In this document: in pieces, positions 12,559-31,113 of the stretch
Layout: each line of letters opens with the position of its first letter
How positions within the stretch are numbered: the stretch's first letter is position 1
Source: Sphingobium sp.
Lineage (GTDB): Bacteria; Pseudomonadota; Alphaproteobacteria; Sphingomonadales; Sphingomonadaceae
DNA: 46,790 nt
Assembly (NCBI GenBank): GCA_013911745.1
Contig: JACESO010000011.1
Location: 1 to 46,790 of the forward strand
Direction: 5' to 3'
Notes under the pieces: generated by a model
The model's database searches: none
The model's input: the letters and a program-made list of their open reading frames with translations, nothing else
What the model was told of the DNA's origin: nothing
Translations under genes and position numbers: made by a program

Positions 12559-14052
12559 TTAAGGCTGCTGCATGCTCGCGGCGGGAACATTGGCGTTTTG
12601 GGCGGGCGAGTCAATGGTGCGCGTGGCGGTCGGCTTCGGCGCGGGATCGAAGTCCCAGTCGAACCACTTGCCCCGGACCCGCTTGTAATTGTCCATGGGA
12701 TCATACAGCGCGCCGCCATTCAGGCCCAGATCGTCCGCCTCGGCATGGCCCATCGCCGCCAGCAGGCTGAAGCCCGCGACATAGGCGTTGCGCCGCGCCG
12801 ATACGAGCTGCACCCGCGCCCGCAACGATTCCTGCTCGGCATCCAGGATGTCGAGGATGGTGCGGCTGCCGACCGAATTTTCCGCTCGCACGCCTTCCAG
12901 CGACAGGCCCGAAGCCGACACCGCGTTTTCCGCCGACTTGATCGTCTCCAGCGACGCCTGCCAGCTGGCGTAGGAGGCGCGGGTCTGGGCGATCACGCCG
13001 CGCTCGGTCTCGATCGCCTGCTCGATCGCCTGCGATTCGAGCGCCTGGCTCTGCCGCACCTGCGCCGCCGGGCGCCCCCCCTGATAGAGGGGGATGTTGA
13101 TCTGCACGCCGGCCGCCGCCTGCTTGTTGATCTGCGGTCCTTCGACGACGTTGCCGTTGCTGTCCTGCGCGCTGCTGTTGAGCGAGTGGAGATAGTTGGT
13201 GTAGCCCGCCTGGGTGAAGGCCGACACGGTGGGCAGCACGGACGCTTTCGCCGCCTTCACGTCATAGGCCCGCGCCTCGCGCACCTTGTTGGCGGCCATG
13301 ATGTCGGGATTGTCGCGCAGCGCCACCTGCACCGCCGCGTCGGGATTTTCCGGCAGGCCCGGCAATTGCGGCGGCGGCTCCAGATTGTCCGGCGCCTCGC
13401 CCACCAGCGCGATGTAATTTTCGCGGCTGGTGATGAGGTTCGCCTGCGCCGTCTGCAAATCCGACCGGGCGAGCGCCAGGCGAGATTGCGACTGGGCCAC
13501 GTCCGTCCGCGTCAGGTCGCCCACCTCGAACCGGTCGTTCGTCGCCTGCAGGTTGACTTCCAGCACGTTCACATTGGCAAGGTTCAGCGACACGATGGCC
13601 GTATCGCGTATCACGTCCATATAGGCGGCGACCGTCTGCGAAAAGACGCTCATCTCGGTGCCGCGCAGCTGCGCCTGCCCCGCCTCGACGCGGGTCTTAG
13701 CCGCCTTGACGCCGTTGCGCACCGCGCCGCCCTGATAGATGGGGACACTGAGCTGCGTCTGGGCGTTGAGGGTCCGCTGCGGCGAGGTGAAGCTGATGGT
13801 GGGCTTGAGGATGCTCTCGGTATAGCTGCCCGACACGTCGAGCGCCGGACGCCCGCTGGCCTTCTGGATCGCGACTCCTTCGTCGGTCGCCCGTTGGCCG
13901 GCGCGCGCGCCCGTCAGCGTCGGGTTGGACGCATAGGCCTTGGCCAGCGCCCCCTGCAGCGTTTCCGCCTGCACCGGCGTCGTCAGCGCGGAAGTCAGCA
14001 ACAAAAGGGCGGCTGCGGCGCGATGCCGTCCGAAAATGCGCTTTGCCGTCAT
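12559..14052 (-). CDS. tolC: TolC-family outer membrane channel protein
   Basis: A 497-residue outer membrane efflux/secretion channel. A signal peptide (about residues 1-29, cleavage after Val-Gln-Ala) is followed by two internally repeated OEP domains: residues about 30-240 (with PTLTGARAGQRA) and about 240-450 (NPDIMAANKVREARAYDVKAA). Each forms part of the twelve-strand barrel and helical tunnel in the TolC trimer. A short Pro-rich tail ends the protein. It follows pcm by 19 bases and is probably cotranscribed with it. As the chromosomal TolC it should serve several inner-membrane pumps, and it is clearly distinct from the island-borne channel at 17413. Confidence 0.92.
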   Translation of the reverse strand: MTAKRIFGRHRAAAALLLLTSALTTPVQAETLQGALAKAYASNPTLTGARAGQRATDEGVAIQKASGRPALDVSGSYTESILKPTISFTSPQRTLNAQTQLSVPIYQGGAVRNGVKAAKTRVEAGQAQLRGTEMSVFSQTVAAYMDVIRDTAIVSLNLANVNVLEVNLQATNDRFEVGDLTRTDVAQSQSRLALARSDLQTAQANLITSRENYIALVGEAPDNLEPPPQLPGLPENPDAAVQVALRDNPDIMAANKVREARAYDVKAAKASVLPTVSAFTQAGYTNYLHSLNSSAQDSNGNVVEGPQINKQAAAGVQINIPLYQGGRPAAQVRQSQALESQAIEQAIETERGVIAQTRASYASWQASLETIKSAENAVSASGLSLEGVRAENSVGSRTILDILDAEQESLRARVQLVSARRNAYVAGFSLLAAMGHAEADDLGLNGGALYDPMDNYKRVRGKWFDWDFDPAPKPTATRTIDSPAQNANVPAASMQQP

Positions 14053-14894: not shown

Positions 14895-14968
14895 GGCCCG
14901 ATGGCGGAGTGGTTACGCAGAGGACTGCAAATCCTTGCACGCCGGTTCGATTCCGGCTCGGGCCTCCA
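14895..14968 (+). tRNA. tRNA-Cys (anticodon GCA)
   Basis: A complete 74-nt cloverleaf including encoded CCA. The acceptor stem GGCCCGA (14895-14901) pairs with TCGGGCC (14958-14964). The D arm is GGCGGAGTGG-like, the anticodon loop has GCA flanked by CT and AA (GCA reads Cys codons), and the T arm contains GGTTCGATTCC. The discriminator base T is the one expected for tRNA-Cys. Its 3' end is the attachment site of the island that follows. Confidence 0.95.
14949..14968 (+). other. attL: tRNA-proximal attachment site of the island
   Basis: The last 20 bases of tRNA-Cys (GATTCCGGCTCGGGCCTCCA) recur at 24528-24546 with one G missing. P4-type integrases commonly recombine in the T arm/3' end of tRNA genes, and an integrase starts 165 bases further on, so this is the tRNA-side junction. 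Confidence 0.75.
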
Positions 14969-15132
14969 TTTCTCCGTTTGAAGACGTCCGGCAGCGTCCA
15001 TCAAACGGCTGTTTTCCATCACTTTTTCTGGTATGATCGCCCGCAGCGGTTCGGACGGTTCCACCTGCATCCGGGTACAATGATGGTACGGATGATGGAT
15101 CGGACCCCGAGCATGAATGCGGAGGTCCATCA

Positions 15133-16383
15133 ATGTCGGACGGTGCGAAACGCAAGACGGGCTTGACCGCCAACGCGGTGAAGCACGCCAGACCCCGAGA
15201 AAAAGATTACAAGCTGTCGGATCGCGACGGCCTGTACCTGCTCGTGAAGACCACTGGTATCCGATACTGGCGCATGAACTACCGCTTCGGTGGACAGCAA
15301 CGGACGTTGTCGTTCGGGCGCTGGCCGGAGATTCTGCTGGGCGATGCGCGCGAGCTGCTGCTCGAAGCGCGCCGCAAGCTCGCCAAGGGACTTGACCCGC
15401 TTGAACAGGCGAAGTTGGACAAGATCGCCAAATCGATCGCTGCTACCAACACGTTTCAGGCCGTGGCGGAAGAATGGCTAGAGAAGATCGAGAAGGAGGG
15501 TCTCGCCGCCATTACCCTAAAGAAAGCCCGCTGGCTGCTGGCGCAAACCTACCCGGCCTTGGGCAAACGTCCGATTTCCGAAATCACTGCCCACGAATTG
15601 CTGCTTGTTCTCAAGAAGGTCGAGGCGTCGAAGCGGTACGACACCGCTAATCGGATCCGCAGCACGTGCAGCCAAGTGTTCCGCTATGCCATCGCCACGG
15701 CACGGGCCGAGCGCGATATCTGCTCCGATCTGCGCGGTGCGCTCGTCACGCCGCGCACCACTCACCGCGCCGCGATCACGACTCCAACGGAAGCCGGCGG
15801 ACTGCTTCGCGCGGTCGAGGACTATGACGGCAACGACCTGACGCGGATTGCGCTCCGGCTGCTGCCTCACTTGTTCGTCCGTCCCGGCGAGCTGCGCTGG
15901 GCGGAATGGAGCGAGTTCGATTTCGACAAGGCGGTCTGGACGATCCCCGACCACAAGATGAAAATGCGACGCCCTCACGCCGTGCCGCTTTCACGGCAGG
16001 CCTTGGCGATCATCGGTGAAATCGAACACGACGCCGGCTACAGCGCTTTCTTGTTTCCGTCGCTGCGGGCGCTCGACCGCCCGATGTCGGACAACACGAT
16101 CAATGCCGCACTACGTCGGCTGGGTTTCAGCAAGGATCAGATGACCGGTCACGGCTTTCGCGCCATGGCCGCCACCTTGCTCAACGAGATGGGCATCTGG
16201 AACCCCGATGCCATCGAGCGCCAACTTGCCCACGCGGACGGCAACTCGATCCGCCGCGCTTACGCCCGTGGCCAGTATTGGGAAGAGCGGGTGCGCATGA
16301 TGCAGCACTGGTCCGACTACATCGATCAGTTGCGCGACGGCGCGACCATCCTGCGCCCCAAGTTCGGCCACAGCGCATCATAA
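15133..16383 (+). CDS. P4-type tyrosine integrase
   Basis: A 416-residue site-specific recombinase that integrates and excises the island at tRNA-Cys. The N-terminal arm-binding domain (DUF4102-like) occupies about residues 8-100, a SAM-like core-binding domain about 105-200, and the catalytic domain about 215-390. Catalytic residues visible are Arg250 (VRPGELRWAEW), His340-x-x-Arg343 (GHGFR), His367 and the nucleophile Tyr377 (RRAYARGQY), so it looks active. GGAGGT at 15121-15126 sits six bases before ATG. It lies 164 bases from the tRNA, as usual for such islands, and its 3' end overlaps the convergent excisionase gene by 6 bases. Confidence 0.95.
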   Translation: MSDGAKRKTGLTANAVKHARPREKDYKLSDRDGLYLLVKTTGIRYWRMNYRFGGQQRTLSFGRWPEILLGDARELLLEARRKLAKGLDPLEQAKLDKIAKSIAATNTFQAVAEEWLEKIEKEGLAAITLKKARWLLAQTYPALGKRPISEITAHELLLVLKKVEASKRYDTANRIRSTCSQVFRYAIATARAERDICSDLRGALVTPRTTHRAAITTPTEAGGLLRAVEDYDGNDLTRIALRLLPHLFVRPGELRWAEWSEFDFDKAVWTIPDHKMKMRRPHAVPLSRQALAIIGEIEHDAGYSAFLFPSLRALDRPMSDNTINAALRRLGFSKDQMTGHGFRAMAATLLNEMGIWNPDAIERQLAHADGNSIRRAYARGQYWEERVRMMQHWSDYIDQLRDGATILRPKFGHSAS

Positions 16384-17412: not shown

Positions 17413-18879
17413 TTAATCTGGTCCAGAAATAGGGGTTAGCCCCAAGGCATCTTCATCTGCAGTCGCGGCGGCCAGTTCGGCTCTGGCAGCGGCAATGCGT
17501 GCCTGTGCTTCAATAAGCTTTACCTCGGCATTGGTTGCACTTTCCTCGCGCTGATTGACTAGGAAGAAGTCGCTCGATCCCAACTCAAACCGCCGCCGTT
17601 CGGCTGCCGCCAGCCGCTGGGCCAGTATGCGTTCCTTATCCGTCGTTGCCACCAACTGATTAGCTGCATCAACCTCAAGGCTGATCGCAGTGACTTCGGC
17701 GCGGATTTTTTCCGCGAGAAACTGCTGCTTGACCGTCAGTTCATCGATCTTGGCCTGCGTTTCAGCCAGCTTGCCTTTGGCCTTTCGGTTTTGCAGCGGT
17801 ATTTTGAACGTCACGCCGACGATCATTTCGAGCGGCGTACGGCTCGATCCGCCCAAGCCGGTCGGGCCGACGTCCTTGGCGACTTCCCCACCAACCTCCA
17901 GCCGCGGTAGCAGGTCGTTGCGGGCAAGAGCGAGCTTGACCGTCGCCTTGTCTATCTCTTGGAGCATAATGGCGAAATCGGGCCGGCCTTCCAGATTGAA
18001 GGCAGAATTCGTCCTGATCCCATCAAGAGCTGCGGCATCGGCCGGCAACCGCATTTCATCGACAACGACCGGCGCGCCATTGGCGTCTCGATAGTAGAGC
18101 GACAGCTTGACGGCTGCGGCACGGAAATCCTGCCGCGCCTCCACGACATAGGCCTGTCGCCTCACAAGATTGACGTCATTCTCGGTCAGCAGAATATCGG
18201 GCTTGGCACCAAGCTGGACCTGACGTTCTATCCCTTTCGTGCGCCCTCCGGCCAGCGCCAGCAGCGCCTCGTAGGCCTTGAGCTTCAGTCCTGCGGCCAC
18301 CCATTTCTGATATGCCTCCACCGCGCGGGCCTGCACGCCTATGCTTGCAGCCTTCGTTTCGAACCGGGCGATGTCGATGTTGTTGGTTGCCAGCCGAAAC
18401 TCGGACCGGCGGGCGTCGATCAGCCTGTCGCGCAGCAGCGAATAAAGCGCCCCAACCTTCAGTTCTCCCAGCCGGTTCGTGTATGATTTGTCTTCATAGA
18501 CAGGGAAATCACCCCTCGACGCCCGATATTGCCCATATAGATAGCCGCCATTGTTGCTCAGTGGCTGTTCGGCCTTTGCCGCAATTTCCGTACCGTCATA
18601 ATAGCCCGCGACTCGGCTCCGCCCCTCCACGGCGAACACGGTGTCGAACGCCCCTTGCGCAGTCAGCGCGCGCGCTTCGGCTTGCCGGTTGCGTGCAAGC
18701 GCGGCTATGATGTCGGGAGCGGATCGGGCGGACGACTGCAACACCTCTTGCAGCGTCAACGGACCATTGCTGGCTGCGGCGGCAACCGTCGGTGGAATGC
18801 TCTGGGCCTGCGCCTGTGCCGTCAGGATCCGGGCAGCGGCCACCAGACAGGCGATGCCGATCACAGTCCGGGTCTTCAC
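17413..18879 (-). CDS. TolC-like outer membrane channel of the island cassette
   Basis: About 488 residues. A hydrophobic signal peptide (TRTVIGIACLVAAARILTAQ, cleavage near AQAQA-QS) is followed by two OEP/TolC repeats with long coiled-coil helices, for example the segments around AVEAYQKWVAAGLKLKAYE and TATDKE/AEVKLIEAQARIAAARAEL. GTG 18879 overlaps the TGA of the upstream adaptor gene (GTGA), which indicates coupled translation and sets the start; the frame is open further upstream but lies inside that gene. It would be the outer-membrane exit duct for the ABC/HlyD pair. It shows little visible similarity to the chromosomal TolC at 12559 beyond the fold. Confidence 0.85.
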   Translation of the reverse strand: MKTRTVIGIACLVAAARILTAQAQAQSIPPTVAAAASNGPLTLQEVLQSSARSAPDIIAALARNRQAEARALTAQGAFDTVFAVEGRSRVAGYYDGTEIAAKAEQPLSNNGGYLYGQYRASRGDFPVYEDKSYTNRLGELKVGALYSLLRDRLIDARRSEFRLATNNIDIARFETKAASIGVQARAVEAYQKWVAAGLKLKAYEALLALAGGRTKGIERQVQLGAKPDILLTENDVNLVRRQAYVVEARQDFRAAAVKLSLYYRDANGAPVVVDEMRLPADAAALDGIRTNSAFNLEGRPDFAIMLQEIDKATVKLALARNDLLPRLEVGGEVAKDVGPTGLGGSSRTPLEMIVGVTFKIPLQNRKAKGKLAETQAKIDELTVKQQFLAEKIRAEVTAISLEVDAANQLVATTDKERILAQRLAAAERRRFELGSSDFFLVNQREESATNAEVKLIEAQARIAAARAELAAATADEDALGLTPISGPD

Positions 18880-19940
18880 TTCTTTTTCTTTTCGATCGAG
18901 CTCTTGTCGGCTTTCTCCTGAGCTTTTTGAGCGACCTGATCCTGCCCGAAGTTGAGCGGGAAGTCGTTGAGCTGTCGCCACAGTTCATAGCCGACGGTGA
19001 CGTTGTCGCCTTGTATCCAGCCCAGCACCTTCCCACCTTGGCGCACGAAGCGGCTGGCGGGCCAGACAGGTTTGCCGGGCGCCGGCTCCACGAGAACCCG
19101 GAACAGGCCGTCGGCACGCGGCGCCGGGTCCACGGAGCGGACCTGTCCGTCGTAAATGCCGATGGCGAAGGCTGGCCAGCCGCTAAACTGAAATGCGGGG
19201 AACCCCTCAAACTCAAGCCGAACCGGACGCCCGCGCTCGACCAAGGGGATGTCCCGCCCGTCAACGAACAATTCCACTGCACGTTCGATTTGTTCGGGAG
19301 TAACAGTCGCAAGCACTGTGCCGGCAGAAATCAGGGCACCGCCCGCAGCCGCATTGAGGTTCTGTATCCGGCCATCCCTCGGCGCAGTGACGAGTTGCGC
19401 GGACTCCCGCATTTGCTTGACCTCGATCTGCTTCAACTTCGCACGAGCCTCGGCTAGCTTGGCGTTGGCGTCGGCGACCTTGATCTGGGTCTGCTCAAAG
19501 TCACGCCGCGCAGCCAAACCTTCCCTGAAGAGCTGCGCGGTGCGGGAGACGTCGATCGCAGCAACCGCGCGCGCTTGCTCGATGGCAGCGATCTGCGCCT
19601 CGACTTCCGACTTTTCGGCAGCCAGGCGATCCAGAAAATTCGGATCGACATCCACGACTTTGGCGATCGGATCGCCAGCTCTTACAAGCGCGCCATCCTG
19701 AACAAAAAAGCGATCCACCCGCCCATCCACCAACGATGACACCTGTTGCGACCGATCGCTCGCATCGAGGGACGTAACTTGGCCTCCGCCCTGTGCGGTC
19801 TGCCGCCAAGGCACAAACAGAATGGCGACAGCCACGCCGAGGCCGATCAGGATCAACCAGGAAACCACGACGATGGCGCGCGGCGGGTTCAGCGAAGCAA
19901 GGGAGCGGAAATGCGCCAACTGAGTCGCGCTGATCGTCAC
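18876..19940 (-). CDS. HlyD-family periplasmic adaptor protein
   Basis: A 354-residue membrane fusion protein. A cytoplasmic N-terminus (about 1-22) and one membrane helix (about 23-44, IVVVSWLILIGLGVAVAILF) are followed by a biotinyl-lipoyl-like half motif (VDGRVDRFFVQDGALVRAGD), a coiled-coil hairpin (about 100-180, rich in Ala, Glu and Lys), the second lipoyl half (TAPRDGRIQNLNAAAGGALI) and a beta-barrel region. The tail is strongly basic (K-S-S-I-E-K-K-K-K). It bridges inner-membrane transporter and outer-membrane channel in type I secretion and efflux. ATG 19940 overlaps the stop of the ABC gene by four bases (ATGA). Confidence 0.9.
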   Translation of the reverse strand: MTISATQLAHFRSLASLNPPRAIVVVSWLILIGLGVAVAILFVPWRQTAQGGGQVTSLDASDRSQQVSSLVDGRVDRFFVQDGALVRAGDPIAKVVDVDPNFLDRLAAEKSEVEAQIAAIEQARAVAAIDVSRTAQLFREGLAARRDFEQTQIKVADANAKLAEARAKLKQIEVKQMRESAQLVTAPRDGRIQNLNAAAGGALISAGTVLATVTPEQIERAVELFVDGRDIPLVERGRPVRLEFEGFPAFQFSGWPAFAIGIYDGQVRSVDPAPRADGLFRVLVEPAPGKPVWPASRFVRQGGKVLGWIQGDNVTVGYELWRQLNDFPLNFGQDQVAQKAQEKADKSSIEKKKK

Positions 19941-21664
19941 GACCGAACCTCCCTCGTGGCGAGAAATTGAGACAATGCGGCATTGTCCCCGAAACGACGT
20001 TGCGCCTGCGTCCCCAGCCAGAGACAGCAGTCCAGATTCAGCGCTTCGGGCCTTCCCGTAAATAAAAATATCGTCGTTTCTTTCTCCCGAAGCATCTTCA
20101 ATGTGGCTTGGAGCGCATCAGCGGGCATCATGTCGTAAAGTTGGGAAAGCAACAGCACCTTTGGCTGGCTTATCAGCGCGGCGGCCGCCTTGAGCTGCAT
20201 GACTTCCACGATGGACAGGGGAGAACCCGAACTTGCCAGCTGCGTATCAAGGCCCTGCCGCAGGCTGGATATGCGGGTAGCGAGACCGACGACAGCGAGC
20301 ACCTTCATGGAAAGCGCGCTGTCCGCATTACCGCCCGCGGCCATGTTCAGATATTCGCGGATGGTGACGTCAACAATGGTGGGCCGGTTGAGCACCACGA
20401 CTTCTGAGCGCAGCAAATACATATCGAAGCTGCCCAGATCGCTGCCGCCGATCGTCAGCAACCCGCGTTCCGGATTTACGTGGCGCTTAAGCAGCAGCGC
20501 TATCTGATTCTCTACACCCGGATCCGCGACGACAACTGCCTGCTCCCCACTGTCGAGCAGGAAATCGAACCGCGACTCGCCTAGCTCGACGGTGCGGAAC
20601 CGGACCGATCCGTTCGAGGGCGCCTGACCGCTGAGGCCCAAAGGCTCCTGAGGGATCGCGAAGATCTGCGACAGTTCCTCCGAACTGGCGACCAGATCGT
20701 AGAATGTGTCGAGATACCAGCCCAGTTGTGCGATGCCGTAGAACACGCCGGAGAGGATGAGTTCTGCCGCGACAAGCTGGCCGATCGAGAGCTGCCCTGC
20801 GAGAATGAGATTTCCGCCAAGGGCCAGCAGGGCTGAGGCCGCGAAGGCATAAACCAGGAAATAGGCCAGCGCCTGCGCAAAGCTGTACCGAAAATATCGA
20901 CGATGCGCGCGAATGTAATTTGCTGTCACCGCCTCCGAGCGATCCATGGCGAAATCAAGATGTCGGGCCGATTTGTAGAAGCCATTCGAAGCTCCCACGC
21001 TTTCAAGCCACTGCGCCGCTTCATGCTTGGCATGGGAAACCCCTATGGCGCCCGTGATTGCGCCATGGCGCCACAGCATCCAGATCAGCAGGCATATCAC
21101 CACGAGAATGATGTTAAAGGCGAGAAAGAAGGGGTGATAAAAGCTTGTGACTACCAGGCCTACCGCGCCCTGAAGAATAATGGTGAATGCACCGATGACA
21201 AGGCTTGGGACGGACTTCTGGACGACGACCATGTCGAAATAGCGGTTGAACAGACTGCCCCGGCTTTCGTCAGCGAAGAAAGGGTTCTGAGCGTGAACCG
21301 CCCTTACCGTGACTTCCGCCACCACGCGCGCAAATAGGCGACGCTCAAACATGGTCAGCAAGTAAAGCCGCAAGGCGCTGAGGCAAGCGACCATGAGCAG
21401 CAGTACCAGCATGACGCCCGATAATATCCAAAGCGGCGCGACTAGTGCCGTCCGGGCGACCGAGTTTATCAGAAGTTGAACGGAAATCGGTGTTGCCAAC
21501 GAGAGAAGCGTTATCGCGAGCGTATAGATAATGCCGACATTGACGTAGCCCTTGTCCGGGCCAACAATCTCTCCCACCCACGCGGCAGCATGCCGCAGAC
21601 CGAACTGCTCGCCAGCCAATTTGAACCCCTCGAATTTCTGCGGTCGGTTCAATAGCCAACCCAT
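19937..21664 (-). CDS. ABC transporter-like protein with degenerate nucleotide-binding domain
   Basis: A 575-residue fusion of a six-helix exporter membrane domain (helices at about 44-66, 78-100, 153-175, 180-200, 264-288 and 294-316) and a C-terminal ABC ATPase-like domain (about 352-560), in the layout of HlyB-type exporters but without an N-terminal peptidase domain. The ATPase motifs are lost. The Walker A position reads ADPGVENQI (380-388) and has no Lys-Ser/Thr. The Q-loop Gln is Asn426. The signature reads LSIVE (483-487) instead of LSGGQ. Walker B reads VLLLSQ (503-508), with Ser and Gln in place of Asp and Glu. The H-loop His is Gly537. Structural strands such as LLTIGGSDL remain. 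The frame is intact and coupled to the HlyD gene by ATGA. Hydrolysis of ATP by this subunit alone is very unlikely; it may pair with an active ABC half encoded elsewhere. Confidence 0.85.
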   Translation of the reverse strand: MGWLLNRPQKFEGFKLAGEQFGLRHAAAWVGEIVGPDKGYVNVGIIYTLAITLLSLATPISVQLLINSVARTALVAPLWILSGVMLVLLLMVACLSALRLYLLTMFERRLFARVVAEVTVRAVHAQNPFFADESRGSLFNRYFDMVVVQKSVPSLVIGAFTIILQGAVGLVVTSFYHPFFLAFNIILVVICLLIWMLWRHGAITGAIGVSHAKHEAAQWLESVGASNGFYKSARHLDFAMDRSEAVTANYIRAHRRYFRYSFAQALAYFLVYAFAASALLALGGNLILAGQLSIGQLVAAELILSGVFYGIAQLGWYLDTFYDLVASSEELSQIFAIPQEPLGLSGQAPSNGSVRFRTVELGESRFDFLLDSGEQAVVVADPGVENQIALLLKRHVNPERGLLTIGGSDLGSFDMYLLRSEVVVLNRPTIVDVTIREYLNMAAGGNADSALSMKVLAVVGLATRISSLRQGLDTQLASSGSPLSIVEVMQLKAAAALISQPKVLLLSQLYDMMPADALQATLKMLREKETTIFLFTGRPEALNLDCCLWLGTQAQRRFGDNAALSQFLATREVRS

Positions 21665-22111: not shown

Positions 22112-23311
22112 TCATGGCGTGTTCTTCCGGGTCGGCGGCGCCGATTGCGGTGGAGCGCGGGGCTGGCACCATCGGGCGAAGGCCTCAATGATCGTCATAT
22201 GCCCGCCGCAGCAAGGGCATGGCGGGCGATGATCGGGCGGGTCGTCGAGTTTGGTGTCGGTCTCCTCAATCGGCGCGGCGACGCCAAGCAGCCTGCGGGC
22301 CAGCGCCATGGCCTCCTTGTGCGTCGAACTGGCAAGCAGGCCATAATGCCGGATGCGATGAAAGCCGCGCGGCAGGACATGGATCAGGAAGCGGCGGATG
22401 AACTCGTCGGTGGTCAGCGTCATGACCTGCTGGCGTTCGCCACCGTCGCGGCGATAATCCTTGTACCGGTACGTCACCCCAGTCTCGTCGAAGGCAATGA
22501 GGCGCCGGTTCGAGATGGCAACACGGTGCGTGTAGCGCGAGAGATAAGCCAGCACCGCCTGCGGGCCGGCAAAGGGTGGCTTGGCATAGACCACCCAGCG
22601 CGTCTTCCGGATGGGCGACAGATGCCGTAGGAGGGCCTTGCGCTGTGCAAGGCCAGCCAAGGTGCTGAAGAAGGCCAGCTTGCCGGCGTCGAACAGCGCC
22701 AGCAGGCGGGCGAGGAACAGCCGGCGGAACAATGCACCCAGCACACGCACCGGCAGCAGGAACGCGGGGCGCGACGAGATCCAGCGCGTACCGTCGAGCG
22801 CGATGCCGCCGCCAGGTACGATCATGTGCACGTGAGGGTGGTGGGTCAGTGCAGAGCCCCATGTGTGGAGCACGGCGGTGATGCCGATGCGCGCGCCGAG
22901 GTGCTTGGGATCGGCCGCGATGGTCAGCATCGTGTCTGCGGCGGCGCGGAACAGCAGGTCATAGACCACCGCCTTGTTCTGCCAGGCGATGTCGGCGATC
23001 TGGGCAGGCACCGTGAACACAACGTGGAAGTAGCCGACCGGCAACAGATCGGCCTCACGCGCGGCCAACCAGGTCCGCGCGGCAGCGCCCTGGCACTTGG
23101 GACAATGCCGGTTGCGGCAGGAGTTGTAGGCGATCCGCCAGTGCCCGCAGTCGTCGCAGGCCTCGACGTGACCTCCCAGCGCAGCGGTGCGGCAATTCTC
23201 GATCGCCGTCATGGCCTTGAGCTGGCCGAGGCTCAGATGCCCGGCGTGGGCCGCGCGATACGCGGGCCCGGCGCTACGGAAGATATCGGCGACCTCGAGC
23301 GAGGCGCGCAC
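22112..23311 (-). CDS. IS91-family transposase (HUH, Y2 rolling-circle type)
   Basis: A 399-residue transposase. An N-terminal zinc-binding domain shows CDDC (52-55), Cys65 and CPKC (70-73). The HUH metal-binding motif is HPHVH at 158-162. The catalytic tyrosine motif YLSRYTHRVAI places Tyr256 and Tyr260 as the two nucleophiles. A second cysteine pair (CPCC) lies near the C-terminus, before a Pro-rich tail. It nicks and transfers single strands in rolling-circle transposition. It starts with GTG 23311, four bases after the stop of the upstream recombinase. All catalytic residues are present, so it may be active. Confidence 0.93.
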   Translation of the reverse strand: MRASLEVADIFRSAGPAYRAAHAGHLSLGQLKAMTAIENCRTAALGGHVEACDDCGHWRIAYNSCRNRHCPKCQGAAARTWLAAREADLLPVGYFHVVFTVPAQIADIAWQNKAVVYDLLFRAAADTMLTIAADPKHLGARIGITAVLHTWGSALTHHPHVHMIVPGGGIALDGTRWISSRPAFLLPVRVLGALFRRLFLARLLALFDAGKLAFFSTLAGLAQRKALLRHLSPIRKTRWVVYAKPPFAGPQAVLAYLSRYTHRVAISNRRLIAFDETGVTYRYKDYRRDGGERQQVMTLTTDEFIRRFLIHVLPRGFHRIRHYGLLASSTHKEAMALARRLLGVAAPIEETDTKLDDPPDHRPPCPCCGGHMTIIEAFARWCQPRAPPQSAPPTRKNTP

Positions 23312-23315
23312 CGGC

Positions 23316-24224
23316 TCAGCCTGGAGGAGCCACCTGCGCCTCGAGCAGTGTCGTCAACTTGTCCAGTGGACTGATGACTGCGCGCACGGTTCGAGTGGCG
23401 ACCGTGGTGTAGAAAGCGGTTGTCTCGAGGTTGGCGTGTCCGAGCAGCGCCTGGATGATCCGGATATCGACGCCGTCTTCAAGCAGATGTGTCGCGAAGC
23501 TGTGCCGCAGAGTGTGTGGGCCGACGCGTTTTTTGATACCCGCAGCCTCGGCAGCATCGACGACGATGCGATGGAGCTGCCTGGTACTAAGCGGCTTGAG
23601 ATAGTGCATTCCCGGGAACAGCCAGCCATCGGCGTGCATGACGCCCTGCTTGCGGCCAACCGTCCACCACTCGCGCAAAAGAGCAAGAAGGTCAGCGGGC
23701 AGGAGCGCATTGCGATATCGCCCGCCTTTACCGCGTTCCACTCGCAGGAGCATGCGCTTGCTGTCGACATCACGGACCTTCAGCATCGTCACTTCGGCGG
23801 CGCGCAAGCCAGCGCCATACGCAACGGACAGTGCAGCCTTGTGCTTCAGGCAGTTGGTCGCACCGAGTAGGAGCACAACTTCGTCGCGGCTGAGGACAAC
23901 GGGCAAGGAGCGCGGATTCTTGACCGTATAGAGCTTGCGGGAGAGATCCGGGCGATCAATGGTGTGCGTGAAAAAGAACCGCAGCGCAGAAACGATGCTG
24001 TTCATGGTCGGGATCCCGATGCCCGCCTCGCGCTGTTCGACCTGAAATTGCCGGAGCTCTTCTACGGTCGCAGTATCGGGAGGGCGCCCAAGATATGTGG
24101 CGAACCGCGCGACGTGGCGCACATAGTCGAACTGGGTCTTCCGCGTGAACCGGCGCATGTTCATGTCTTCGATCATGCGCTGACGCAGCGAAGTGGCGGG
24201 GGCATCGGACAGAACGGTGGTCAT
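23316..24224 (-). CDS. Tyrosine recombinase accompanying the IS91-type transposase
   Basis: A 302-residue phage-integrase-type recombinase. The SAM-like N-terminal domain (about 12-100) includes MRRFTRKTQFDYVRHVARF; the catalytic domain shows Arg141 (GAGLRAAEV), His237-x-x-Arg240 (PHTLRHSFATHLL), His263 (LLGHANLETT) and the nucleophile Tyr272. It is unrelated in domain layout to the P4-type integrase at 15133. Such recombinases frequently precede IS91-like transposases as a pair, possibly to resolve or promote transposition. The catalytic set is complete. Confidence 0.92.
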   Translation of the reverse strand: MTTVLSDAPATSLRQRMIEDMNMRRFTRKTQFDYVRHVARFATYLGRPPDTATVEELRQFQVEQREAGIGIPTMNSIVSALRFFFTHTIDRPDLSRKLYTVKNPRSLPVVLSRDEVVLLLGATNCLKHKAALSVAYGAGLRAAEVTMLKVRDVDSKRMLLRVERGKGGRYRNALLPADLLALLREWWTVGRKQGVMHADGWLFPGMHYLKPLSTRQLHRIVVDAAEAAGIKKRVGPHTLRHSFATHLLEDGVDIRIIQALLGHANLETTAFYTTVATRTVRAVISPLDKLTTLLEAQVAPPG

Positions 24225-29668: not shown

Positions 29669-31113
29669 CAGCGTTCGTAATGATCCGCCACGAACCGGTC
29701 GATCAGGCGCACGCCGTAACCGGTCGCGCCCTTGTCCCAGGTGCCGCCCGGCTTGTCCGCCCACACCATGCCGGCGATGTCGAGATGCGCCCATTTGACG
29801 CCATCCTCGATGAAGCGCTTCAGGAACTGCGCCGCCGTGATCGACCCGGCATAGCGCGGCCCGATATTCTTCATGTCTGCGATGGGGCTGTCGATCAGCT
29901 TGTCATAGGCGGCCGACAGCGGAAAGCGCCACAGCGGATCGCCTACCGCCTGCCCCGCCGCGATCAGGTCGGCCGCAAGGCCATCGTCATTGGAGAAGAT
30001 GCCCGCATATTCATTGCCCAGCGACACGATCATCGCGCCCGTCAGCGTGGCGAGATCGACGATCACCTCCGGGTTGTAGGTCCGCTGCGCCCAGGTCAGC
30101 GCGTCGCACAGCACCAGCCGCCCTTCCGCGTCGGTGTTCAGCACCTCGATCGTCTGCCCCGACATGGAGGTGACGATGTCGCCCGGGCGCTGCGCATTGC
30201 CGTCCGGCATATTTTCAACAAGGCCGCAAATGCCCACGACCCGAGCCTTGGCCTTGCGCCCGGCCAGCGCCTTCATCGCGCCCGCGACCGCGCCCGCGCC
30301 GCCCATGTCCCACTTCATGTCCTCCATGCCCGCCGCCGGCTTGATGGAGATGCCGCCGGTGTCGAAGGTCACGCCCTTGCCCACGAACACCACCGGCTTT
30401 TCCGCCGCGCCGTTGGTGCCGTCCCATTCCATCGCCAGCAGCCGTGCCTCGCGAGGTGACCCCTGCGCCACGCCCAGCAGCGATCCCATGCCCAGCTCCT
30501 CCATCGCCGCCTTGTCCAGCACGGTGATCTTGACGCCCAGGTCGGCGAGATGCCGGCACCGCTCGACGAAGCTTTCGGGATAGAGGATGTTCGCCGGCTC
30601 CGACACCAGTTCGCGGGTGAAGGCGACGCCGTCCGCGATCGCCGCCTGCGCCTGCCATGCGCTGTCGGCGCCCTCCGTCACGATCGTCAGCGTCTTGAGC
30701 GTGGGCTTCGCCTTCTCGCTCTGGCGCGTGCGATAGGTGTCGATGCGCCAGCCGCGCAGCCGCGCGCCGAACGCCAGCGCCGCCGCAACCTCCGCGCTCG
30801 CGCCGCCGACGAACTCGACCGCCGCATGGGCCGCCCCGCTGGTCGCCAGCTTCGCCGTCAGCGCCGCGCCGGCCTTCTCCGCGTCCTGCGCGCCGCCGCC
30901 GCCGGTGCCGAGCAACAGCACGCGCAGCGTCTGTTCGCCTTCCGCGACGAAGCTCTCGAAGCTCGTCCCCGCCTCGCCCGTGAAGCGCGAAGCGGCCGCG
31001 CCCGCCGCCAGCGTCGCCGCCGCGCTCAGCGGCAGCGCATCAAAACCCCCCTTCTGCACGGCAAGGACCAGCGTGTCTGCGTCGGGGCGGGTCGGGCTGA
31101 ACTGAATATCCAT
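29668..31113 (-). CDS. pepA: Leucyl aminopeptidase (cytosol aminopeptidase, M17)
   Basis: A 481-residue dinuclear metal exopeptidase. The N-terminal macro-like domain (about 1-160) precedes the catalytic domain, which shows VGKGVTFDTGGIS (metal-binding Lys/Asp), the MKWDMGGAGAV segment and the family signature NTDAEGRL with catalytic Arg and metal-binding Asp/Glu. ATG 31113 is preceded by AGAGG. The E. coli relative also binds DNA in plasmid-dimer resolution and gene regulation; whether this one does is unknown. It heads the pepA-holC unit, divergent from lptD with a 164-base spacer. Confidence 0.96.
   Translation of the reverse strand: MDIQFSPTRPDADTLVLAVQKGGFDALPLSAAATLAAGAAASRFTGEAGTSFESFVAEGEQTLRVLLLGTGGGGAQDAEKAGAALTAKLATSGAAHAAVEFVGGASAEVAAALAFGARLRGWRIDTYRTRQSEKAKPTLKTLTIVTEGADSAWQAQAAIADGVAFTRELVSEPANILYPESFVERCRHLADLGVKITVLDKAAMEELGMGSLLGVAQGSPREARLLAMEWDGTNGAAEKPVVFVGKGVTFDTGGISIKPAAGMEDMKWDMGGAGAVAGAMKALAGRKAKARVVGICGLVENMPDGNAQRPGDIVTSMSGQTIEVLNTDAEGRLVLCDALTWAQRTYNPEVIVDLATLTGAMIVSLGNEYAGIFSNDDGLAADLIAAGQAVGDPLWRFPLSAAYDKLIDSPIADMKNIGPRYAGSITAAQFLKRFIEDGVKWAHLDIAGMVWADKPGGTWDKGATGYGVRLIDRFVADHYER

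What the first reader, a model, noticed from the sequence alone, without database searches (positions are those of the whole stretch)
19937..21664. Exporter-type ABC protein with every ATPase motif lost but an intact frame
The membrane domain and the outline of the nucleotide-binding domain are preserved, yet Walker A (ADPGVENQI, 380-388), the Q-loop (Asn426), the signature (LSIVE, 483-487), Walker B (VLLLSQ, 503-508) and the H-loop (Gly537) all lack their catalytic residues. There is no stop codon or frameshift, and the gene is coupled to its HlyD partner by ATGA. This points to a selected pseudo-ATPase rather than decay: either a non-hydrolysing half of a heterodimer, or a scaffold that recruits another energy source.
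Basis: partly seen in the sequence, partly recalled or inferred. Interest (0 to 1): 0.8.

Follow-up and report, generated by a model that had tools for sequence, protein, structure and literature searches.

The report
Exporter family with a dead motor
A bacterial pump that looks like an ATP-driven exporter has lost the working parts of its ATP-burning engine but is carefully preserved with its partner proteins in many species, so it probably runs on something else.

Summary
The gene (minus strand) encodes an ABC-exporter-type protein with no catalytic residue left in Walker A, Q-loop, signature, Walker B or H-loop, and it is not decaying. It belongs to a family found in Sphingomonadales, another class of the same phylum, and Persicobacter (Bacteroidota). 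Of 117 distinct members, 0 have the signature GG (35 keep the second G), 0 the Q-loop Gln, 22 the Walker A Lys, 24 the Walker B Asp, 4 the catalytic Glu, and 1 has Lys, Asp and Glu together; 117 have a glutamate in transmembrane helix 6 that 42 intact exporters lack. HlyD follows in 91 of 91 loci, TolC in 87. Selection is purifying and strongest on the membrane domain, the reverse of most intact exporters compared. The ABC-ATPase fold is still predicted.

A heterodimer with an active half is weakened, not excluded. Most likely this is a self-contained tripartite exporter not driven by its own ATP hydrolysis, perhaps by the proton-motive force, as SbmA is. Substrate, energy source and any partner are untested.

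The parts
19937..21664 (-). Pseudo-ATPase ABC exporter, 575 aa from the ATG; likely true start TTG at 21619 (560 aa)
20660..21559 (-). Membrane domain, residues 36-335 (boundaries approximate)
   Evidence: Pfam ABC_membrane match 43-197; alignment A2; model helices
20762..20764 (-). Codon of Glu301, TM6, invariant in the family
   Evidence: 117 of 117 members; 0 of 13 and 0 of 29 intact exporters
19979..20629 (-). Pseudo nucleotide-binding domain, residues 346-562
   Evidence: model pLDDT blocks 76-94 for residues 351-570; TAP1 NBD 2ixe Z 24.1, rmsd 2.5, 229 aligned
20501..20527 (-). Former Walker A, ADPGVENQI (380-388)
20387..20389 (-). Former Q-loop position, Asn426
20204..20218 (-). Former signature, LSIVE (483-487)
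20141..20158 (-). Former Walker B, VLLLSQ (503-508)
20054..20056 (-). Former H-loop position, Gly537 (alignment uncertain by one column)
18876..19940 (-). HlyD-type periplasmic adaptor, 354 aa, GTG start overlapping the ABC stop
17413..18879 (-). TolC-type outer membrane channel, 488 aa from the GTG overlapping the HlyD stop

Best explanation
SHOWN by sequence: the protein is one member of a conserved family of ABC-exporter-fold membrane proteins whose nucleotide-binding domain has lost catalytic residues, encoded in one operon with a HlyD-type adaptor and, in most loci, a TolC-type channel. INFERRED: the three make a tripartite exporter spanning both membranes. The membrane domain, as a dimer, does alternating access without ATP hydrolysis by its own cassette. 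The dead cassette is kept as a dimerising and coupling scaffold. The most likely energy source is the proton- or ion-motive force, with the family-specific Glu301, about seven residues from the start of the modelled TM6 helix, as the leading candidate for the coupling carboxylate. The substrate is probably a small molecule or short peptide; a LysR-type regulator lies divergently upstream in 32 of 82 loci. The gradient among relatives (Lys, Asp and Glu kept; then Lys and Asp; then nothing; then a barely recognisable cassette) suggests that signature and Q-loop went first and nucleotide binding later.
For: Losses shared by all 117 distinct members: no signature GG, no Q-loop Gln. Strong purifying selection, with the altered motif columns at dN/dS 0.013-0.141. 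Membrane domain more conserved than the cassette: mean identity 37% against 25% in the family, 33% against 49% in 12 intact exporters; all 10 invariant columns of 41 rows lie in the membrane domain. Glu301 in 117 of 117, 0 of 13 and 0 of 29 intact exporters. HlyD follows in 82 of 82 loci and TolC in 81 of 82; in a second set HlyD in 9 of 9, TolC in 6 of 9. The operon also lies on plasmids. Precedents: SbmA-like transporters are proton-driven and proposed to derive from full ABC exporters (PMC13316013, passages); the LmrA membrane domain is described as a secondary-active translocator that needs a TM6 glutamate (PMC6155054, passages).
Against: No transport, ATPase or binding data exist here. 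Glu301 is not the LmrA site: it lies 92-98 residues before the Walker A lysine against 74 in LmrA (that K388 is the Walker A lysine is recalled). SbmA uses a ladder of glutamates; only one acidic residue is both invariant in the membrane domain here and absent from the intact exporters. In the LmrA paper some ion currents needed ATP binding and were not seen with the NBD-less form, so ion coupling without nucleotide is not a given. SbmA has lost the NBD, whereas this family keeps the fold under selection, which suggests a remaining role. 35 of 117 keep one signature glycine and 22 the Walker A lysine, so some members may still bind nucleotide.
Confidence: 0.42

Rival explanations
1. It is the silent half of a heterodimer with an active ABC half encoded elsewhere in the genome, which supplies the ATP hydrolysis.
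For: Heterodimers with one degenerate site are well known, such as TM287/288, BmrCD and TmrAB (PMC8277102, passages). The window genome has two other exporter-type ABC genes, so a partner is possible.
Against: By the usual rule (recalled) the degenerate half lends its intact signature to the active site; 0 of 117 members have the GG. No second ABC gene was seen in the operon; similarity hits lie 2.5-7.3 kb away in 3 of 82 loci and 1.7 kb upstream, two genes away, in 1 of 9 (L213), not examined further. In G1254, a single-contig genome with a member, PF00664 finds MsbA, CydD and a 551-aa neighbour of CydD (taken as CydC from its position); in G896 MsbA and one unnamed exporter besides the member. 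PF00664 missed the G1254 member itself, so such scans can miss degenerate genes.
Confidence: 0.15
2. It is an ATP-independent gate or docking platform: the ABC dimer holds HlyD and TolC and lets a substrate pass down its own gradient, or hands the duct to an unlinked MFS or RND transporter.
For: Operon conservation with adaptor and channel; invariant columns cluster at the TM5-TM6 turn near the periplasmic side, where a partner might bind. HlyB and HlyD are reported as three HlyB dimers with six HlyD (PMC11026475, passage).
Against: No conserved second transporter gene next door; a conserved membrane carboxylate is not needed for a passive gate.
Confidence: 0.22
3. The cassette is a nucleotide-sensing switch: it still binds ATP or another ligand weakly and opens or closes the transporter without a hydrolysis cycle.
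For: 22 of 117 members keep the Walker A lysine and 24 the Walker B aspartate; the cassette fold is predicted with good confidence.
Against: 95 of 117, the window protein included, lack the Walker A lysine; the motif columns of the window clade are conserved in altered form.
Confidence: 0.1
4. It is a decaying gene.
For: A few members elsewhere are broken: two overlapping pieces in G005, and single in-frame stops in three members of the second class. An IS91-type element upstream in the window could affect its promoter.
Against: Intact frame and dN/dS well below one in the ABC, HlyD and TolC genes; the losses are shared across the family.
Confidence: 0.02

Closest known systems
HlyB/PCAT-type ABC exporters of type I secretion (HlyB-HlyD-TolC)
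   Same: Same gene set and fold: best Foldseek match of the model is HlyB in the HlyB/D complex; best NCBIfam model is type_I_sec_HlyB.
   Different: No working ATPase motifs, 91 bits against a cut-off of 726, no N-terminal C39-like domain matched, and no RTX substrate gene looked for or seen.
SbmA-like peptide transporters (SLiPT)
   Same: Conceptually closest: ABC-type membrane domain that, in SbmA, runs on protons, derived from full ABC exporters (PMC13316013, passages).
   Different: SLiPTs have no NBD and no coupling helices and import peptides; this family keeps an NBD fold and is coupled to an export adaptor and channel.
Heterodimeric ABC exporters with a degenerate site (TM287/288, TmrAB, BmrCD)
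   Same: One NBD with altered catalytic residues; fold matches among the best rows.
   Different: There an intact partner completes one site (PMC8277102, passages); here all motifs including the signature are lost and no partner is linked.
Blastomonas fulva T2 HlyBD2-OMP2 locus (PMC9505733)
   Same: A sphingomonad hlyB (1659 bp), hlyD2, omp2 locus; hlyB 51.8% similar to a Novosphingobium aromaticivorans DSM 12444 protein (passages). That strain carries a family member on a plasmid. It may be this family.
   Different: Described there as an ABC-type efflux pump; the passages I saw say nothing of lost ATPase motifs. Its sequence was not checked.

Membership tests
ABC exporter (fold) | Exporter-type membrane domain fused to an ABC-ATPase-fold domain | tested here: met
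   Pfam ABC_membrane over its cut-off; NBD match to TAP1 2ixe Z 24.1, rmsd 2.5 over 229. The membrane part of the model is of low confidence.
ATP-driven ABC exporter | Walker A, Walker B, signature, Q-loop and H-loop with catalytic residues | tested here: not met
   All absent in the window protein; controls intact.
Type I secretion system | ABC gene with HlyD and TolC partner genes | tested here: met
Type I secretion system | ABC protein scores as a T1SS permease/ATPase | tested here: not met
   Best T1SS model 91.3 bits, curated cut-off 725.55.
Type I secretion system | Secreted protein substrate with C-terminal signal | not tested
   No search for RTX-type substrates was made.
SbmA-like peptide transporter | No NBD | tested here: not met
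   An NBD-fold domain is present.
SbmA-like peptide transporter | Proton-coupled transport | not testable with these tools
   Needs transport assays.
Degenerate half of a heterodimeric ABC exporter | Intact signature to complete the partner's site (recalled rule) | tested here: not met
   0 of 117 with GG; 35 of 117 with the second G only.
Degenerate half of a heterodimeric ABC exporter | A partner gene, usually adjacent | tested here: inconclusive
   None seen inside the operon in 82 plus 9 loci; an unlinked partner cannot be excluded.

The most novel reading that the evidence does not exclude
A second, independent route from ATP-driven ABC exporter to ion-driven transporter, this time in export and in tripartite form: the motor died in steps still visible in living relatives, while a new membrane glutamate took over coupling. 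It would be a tripartite pump with an ABC-type membrane domain that does not run on ATP.
Probability: 0.33. Interest if true: 0.9.

Novelty: new variant of a known kind. Interest (0 to 1): 0.76.

Why it matters
ABC exporters are defined by their ATPase. A family that keeps the architecture and the secretion partners while discarding catalysis makes an open question testable: can the membrane domain of an ABC exporter do directional transport without ATP, as work on LmrA and SbmA suggests? The family holds graded intermediates, from a cassette with Lys, Asp and Glu to one barely recognisable, so the order of loss can be studied. Some members are annotated as 'ABC transporter ATP-binding protein', which is misleading.

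Tried and rejected
Alignment slip or decay: rejected by controls and selection. Active ABC partner in the operon: none seen, by similarity to the family only. Shared neighbour genes that would name a substrate: apart from LysR only groups of three loci; a DUF2309 gene 44 bp upstream on one plasmid had no similar ORF in the other loci. Defence system: no PADLOC match for the three proteins. Glu301 as the equivalent of LmrA E314: rejected by distance to Walker A. Literature: searches returned no papers; I saw no description of this family in the listings (searches listed 10 of 13 and 10 of 16). The library holds open-licence papers only.

Limits. The nearest ATP-driven sister was not found: the tree holds 13 intact exporters, all from the window's own order. 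dS is near or above 1 in most pairs, so dN/dS values are rough. began from 163 records and kept 117 as distinct by their central 240 residues; fragments were not removed. The 41 rows hold one gene twice (L102 and L165). The dN/dS pairs are 10 window comparisons and 6 pairs among 15 sequences chosen by me. One search used the 30 fetched exporter loci out of the longer list; L197 is a family member and was set aside. Absence of Glu at the 301 column was read by eye from the printed alignment. The H-loop column is uncertain by one position: His occurs in 2, 3 and 5 of 117 members in three neighbouring columns. Of the papers, passages only were seen for PMC6155054, PMC13316013, PMC8277102, PMC11026475, PMC9505733 and PMC12487129; the others as search listings.

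Full report
What is there. The ORF at 19937-21664 lies on the minus strand and is open for 575 codons. Pfam finds the exporter membrane domain and no ABC_tran match up to E 0.1. The C-terminal part still aligns with the nucleotide-binding domains of ABCB1 and HlyB. The ABC stop overlaps the HlyD start as GTGA, and the HlyD stop overlaps the TolC start as GTGA, so the three genes form one tight operon. The real ABC start is probably the TTG at 21619, and that of TolC the GTG at 18879.

It is a family. A scan of species genomes gave 56 loci, all with sphingomonad names and all with the motif losses. Among relatives, counting matches of at least 35% identity, 27 of the 99 other genomes have a member, two of them in pieces. 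In plasmids 16 records hold a match over at least 80% of the query: 14 sphingomonad records at 52-84% identity and two Persicobacter records at 24%. A profile found 3 of 385 genomes in the class and 11 of 398 in the phylum, the own genome counted in both. A search around the distant member G804 found 21 of 149 genomes, and a profile search of its class 14 of 369, G804 counted in both. Persicobacter psychrovividus, a Bacteroidota, has a member with HlyD and TolC.

The motor is dead by degrees. Over 117 distinct members none has both glycines of the signature (35 keep the second), and none a glutamine in the Q-loop; 22 keep the Walker A lysine, 24 the Walker B aspartate, 4 the catalytic glutamate, and one, L167, all three. 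One distant clade mostly keeps Walker A and the Walker B aspartate, with Gly in place of most catalytic glutamates and Thr or Arg where the H-loop His would be. The window's clade keeps nothing, and L173-L175 barely resemble a cassette. As controls, 12 intact exporters from the same order and 29 from genomes with a member have the motifs; a few of the former have LSAGE or LSVGE as signature.

The membrane domain is what selection holds most. In 41 rows the 10 invariant columns are all in the membrane domain: P59, R141, Y176, G283, L286, G295, Q296, A299, E301, Y322; L286, Q296, E301 and Y322 occur in none of the 12 intact exporters there. E301 is present in 117 of 117 members and in 0 of 13 and 0 of 29 intact exporters. 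Mean pairwise identity is 37% in the membrane domain and 25% in the cassette; in the 12 intact exporters it is 33% and 49%. dN/dS is 0.022-0.122 in the membrane domain, 0.057-0.256 in the cassette and 0.013-0.141 in the altered motif columns. The NBD/TMD ratio of dN, worked out, is 1.7-4.3; it is 0.61-0.94 in 21 pairs of one intact exporter group, but 1.04-1.63 in three pairs of another, so the reversal is clear against the first and weaker against the second. HlyD (0.054-0.275) and TolC (0.073-0.245) are under purifying selection too. FastTree puts the family apart from 13 intact exporters with support 0.915, but those come from one order.

Fold. The AlphaFold2 model has mean pLDDT 70.4 and pTM 0.56; blocks of the cassette are at 76-94, parts of the membrane domain below 50. 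The cassette matches the TAP1 NBD with Z 24.1, rmsd 2.5 over 229 residues; the best Foldseek hit of the whole model is HlyB/D. So the fold is predicted to be kept although the active site is gone.

Surroundings. HlyD follows in 82 of 82 loci and TolC in 81 of 82, the exception ending at a contig end. In nine further loci HlyD follows in 9 and TolC in 6; of the three without, one is a contig end and two (L206, L214) have other genes after HlyD, in L206 gatCAB. A LysR-type gene lies upstream on the opposite strand within about 600 bases in 32 of 82 loci by my count, found by similarity to five LysR queries; the window's close clade (L031-L045) is not among them. Pfam confirms LysR for L061, L098, L106 and L212. 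No second ABC gene was seen inside the operon; similarity hits to the family lie 2.5-7.3 kb away in L077, L080 and L100 and 1.7 kb upstream in L213. In the window an IS91-type transposase and a tyrosine recombinase lie upstream; in Sphingobium terrigena (L041) the operon has the same further neighbours in the same order without that stretch matching.

How it may work. A heterodimer with an unlinked active half is the textbook expectation, but the degenerate half would have to lend an intact signature (recalled rule), and none of 117 has one. G1254 (single contig, 99% complete) has a member and, by PF00664, MsbA, CydD and a 551-aa neighbour of CydD; G896 (1.3 Mb, single contig) has MsbA and one unnamed exporter. 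The window genome, 81% complete, has two other exporters. That points to transport without ATP hydrolysis by this protein. Two precedents make an ion-driven mechanism reasonable: SbmA-like transporters are proton-driven and proposed to derive from full ABC exporters (PMC13316013, passages), and the LmrA membrane domain is described as a secondary-active translocator with an essential TM6 glutamate (PMC6155054, passages); the same paper also reports currents that needed ATP binding. E301 is the obvious candidate here, but it is not at the LmrA position, and there is no glutamate ladder. A gate or platform role is the next best reading. I give the ion-coupled exporter 0.42.

Relation to what is known. 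By fold and gene set it resembles type I secretion and tripartite ABC efflux; it fails the defining test of an ATP-driven ABC transporter and scores far below the T1SS models. If I am right it works like SbmA, but it is not a member of that family because it has an NBD. A Blastomonas fulva locus described as HlyBD2-OMP2 may belong here. My searches showed no paper that describes the family, within an open-licence library.

Noticed in passing
window 22112-24224 (-): IS91-family transposase and an XerC-like tyrosine recombinase lie just upstream of the ABC operon and may have separated it from its ancestral neighbours or promoter.
   Followed up: partly
window 14895-16383 (+): tRNA-Cys followed by a phage-type integrase gene, a likely integration site beside the operon. 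No long direct repeat was found in the quick test.
   Followed up: partly
window 12559-14052 (-): A second, better-scoring TolC-type OEP gene next to a valyl-tRNA synthetase-like gene.
   Followed up: no
window 30941-31019 (-): ARAGORN calls a tRNA-Val inside the leucyl aminopeptidase-like ORF; perhaps a false call.
   Followed up: no
L143 1362-13032: On Sphingobium plasmid pHAL16 the operon starts 44 bp after a DUF2309 gene, and a carbonic anhydrase gene lies nearby.
   Followed up: partly
L134, L142, L207: These distant members have N-terminal extensions of about 150-220 residues without a Pfam match.
   Followed up: partly
L206, L214: Two genomes of one group have ABC-HlyD without a following TolC gene; members of that group have the most degenerate cassettes of the family.
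   Followed up: partly
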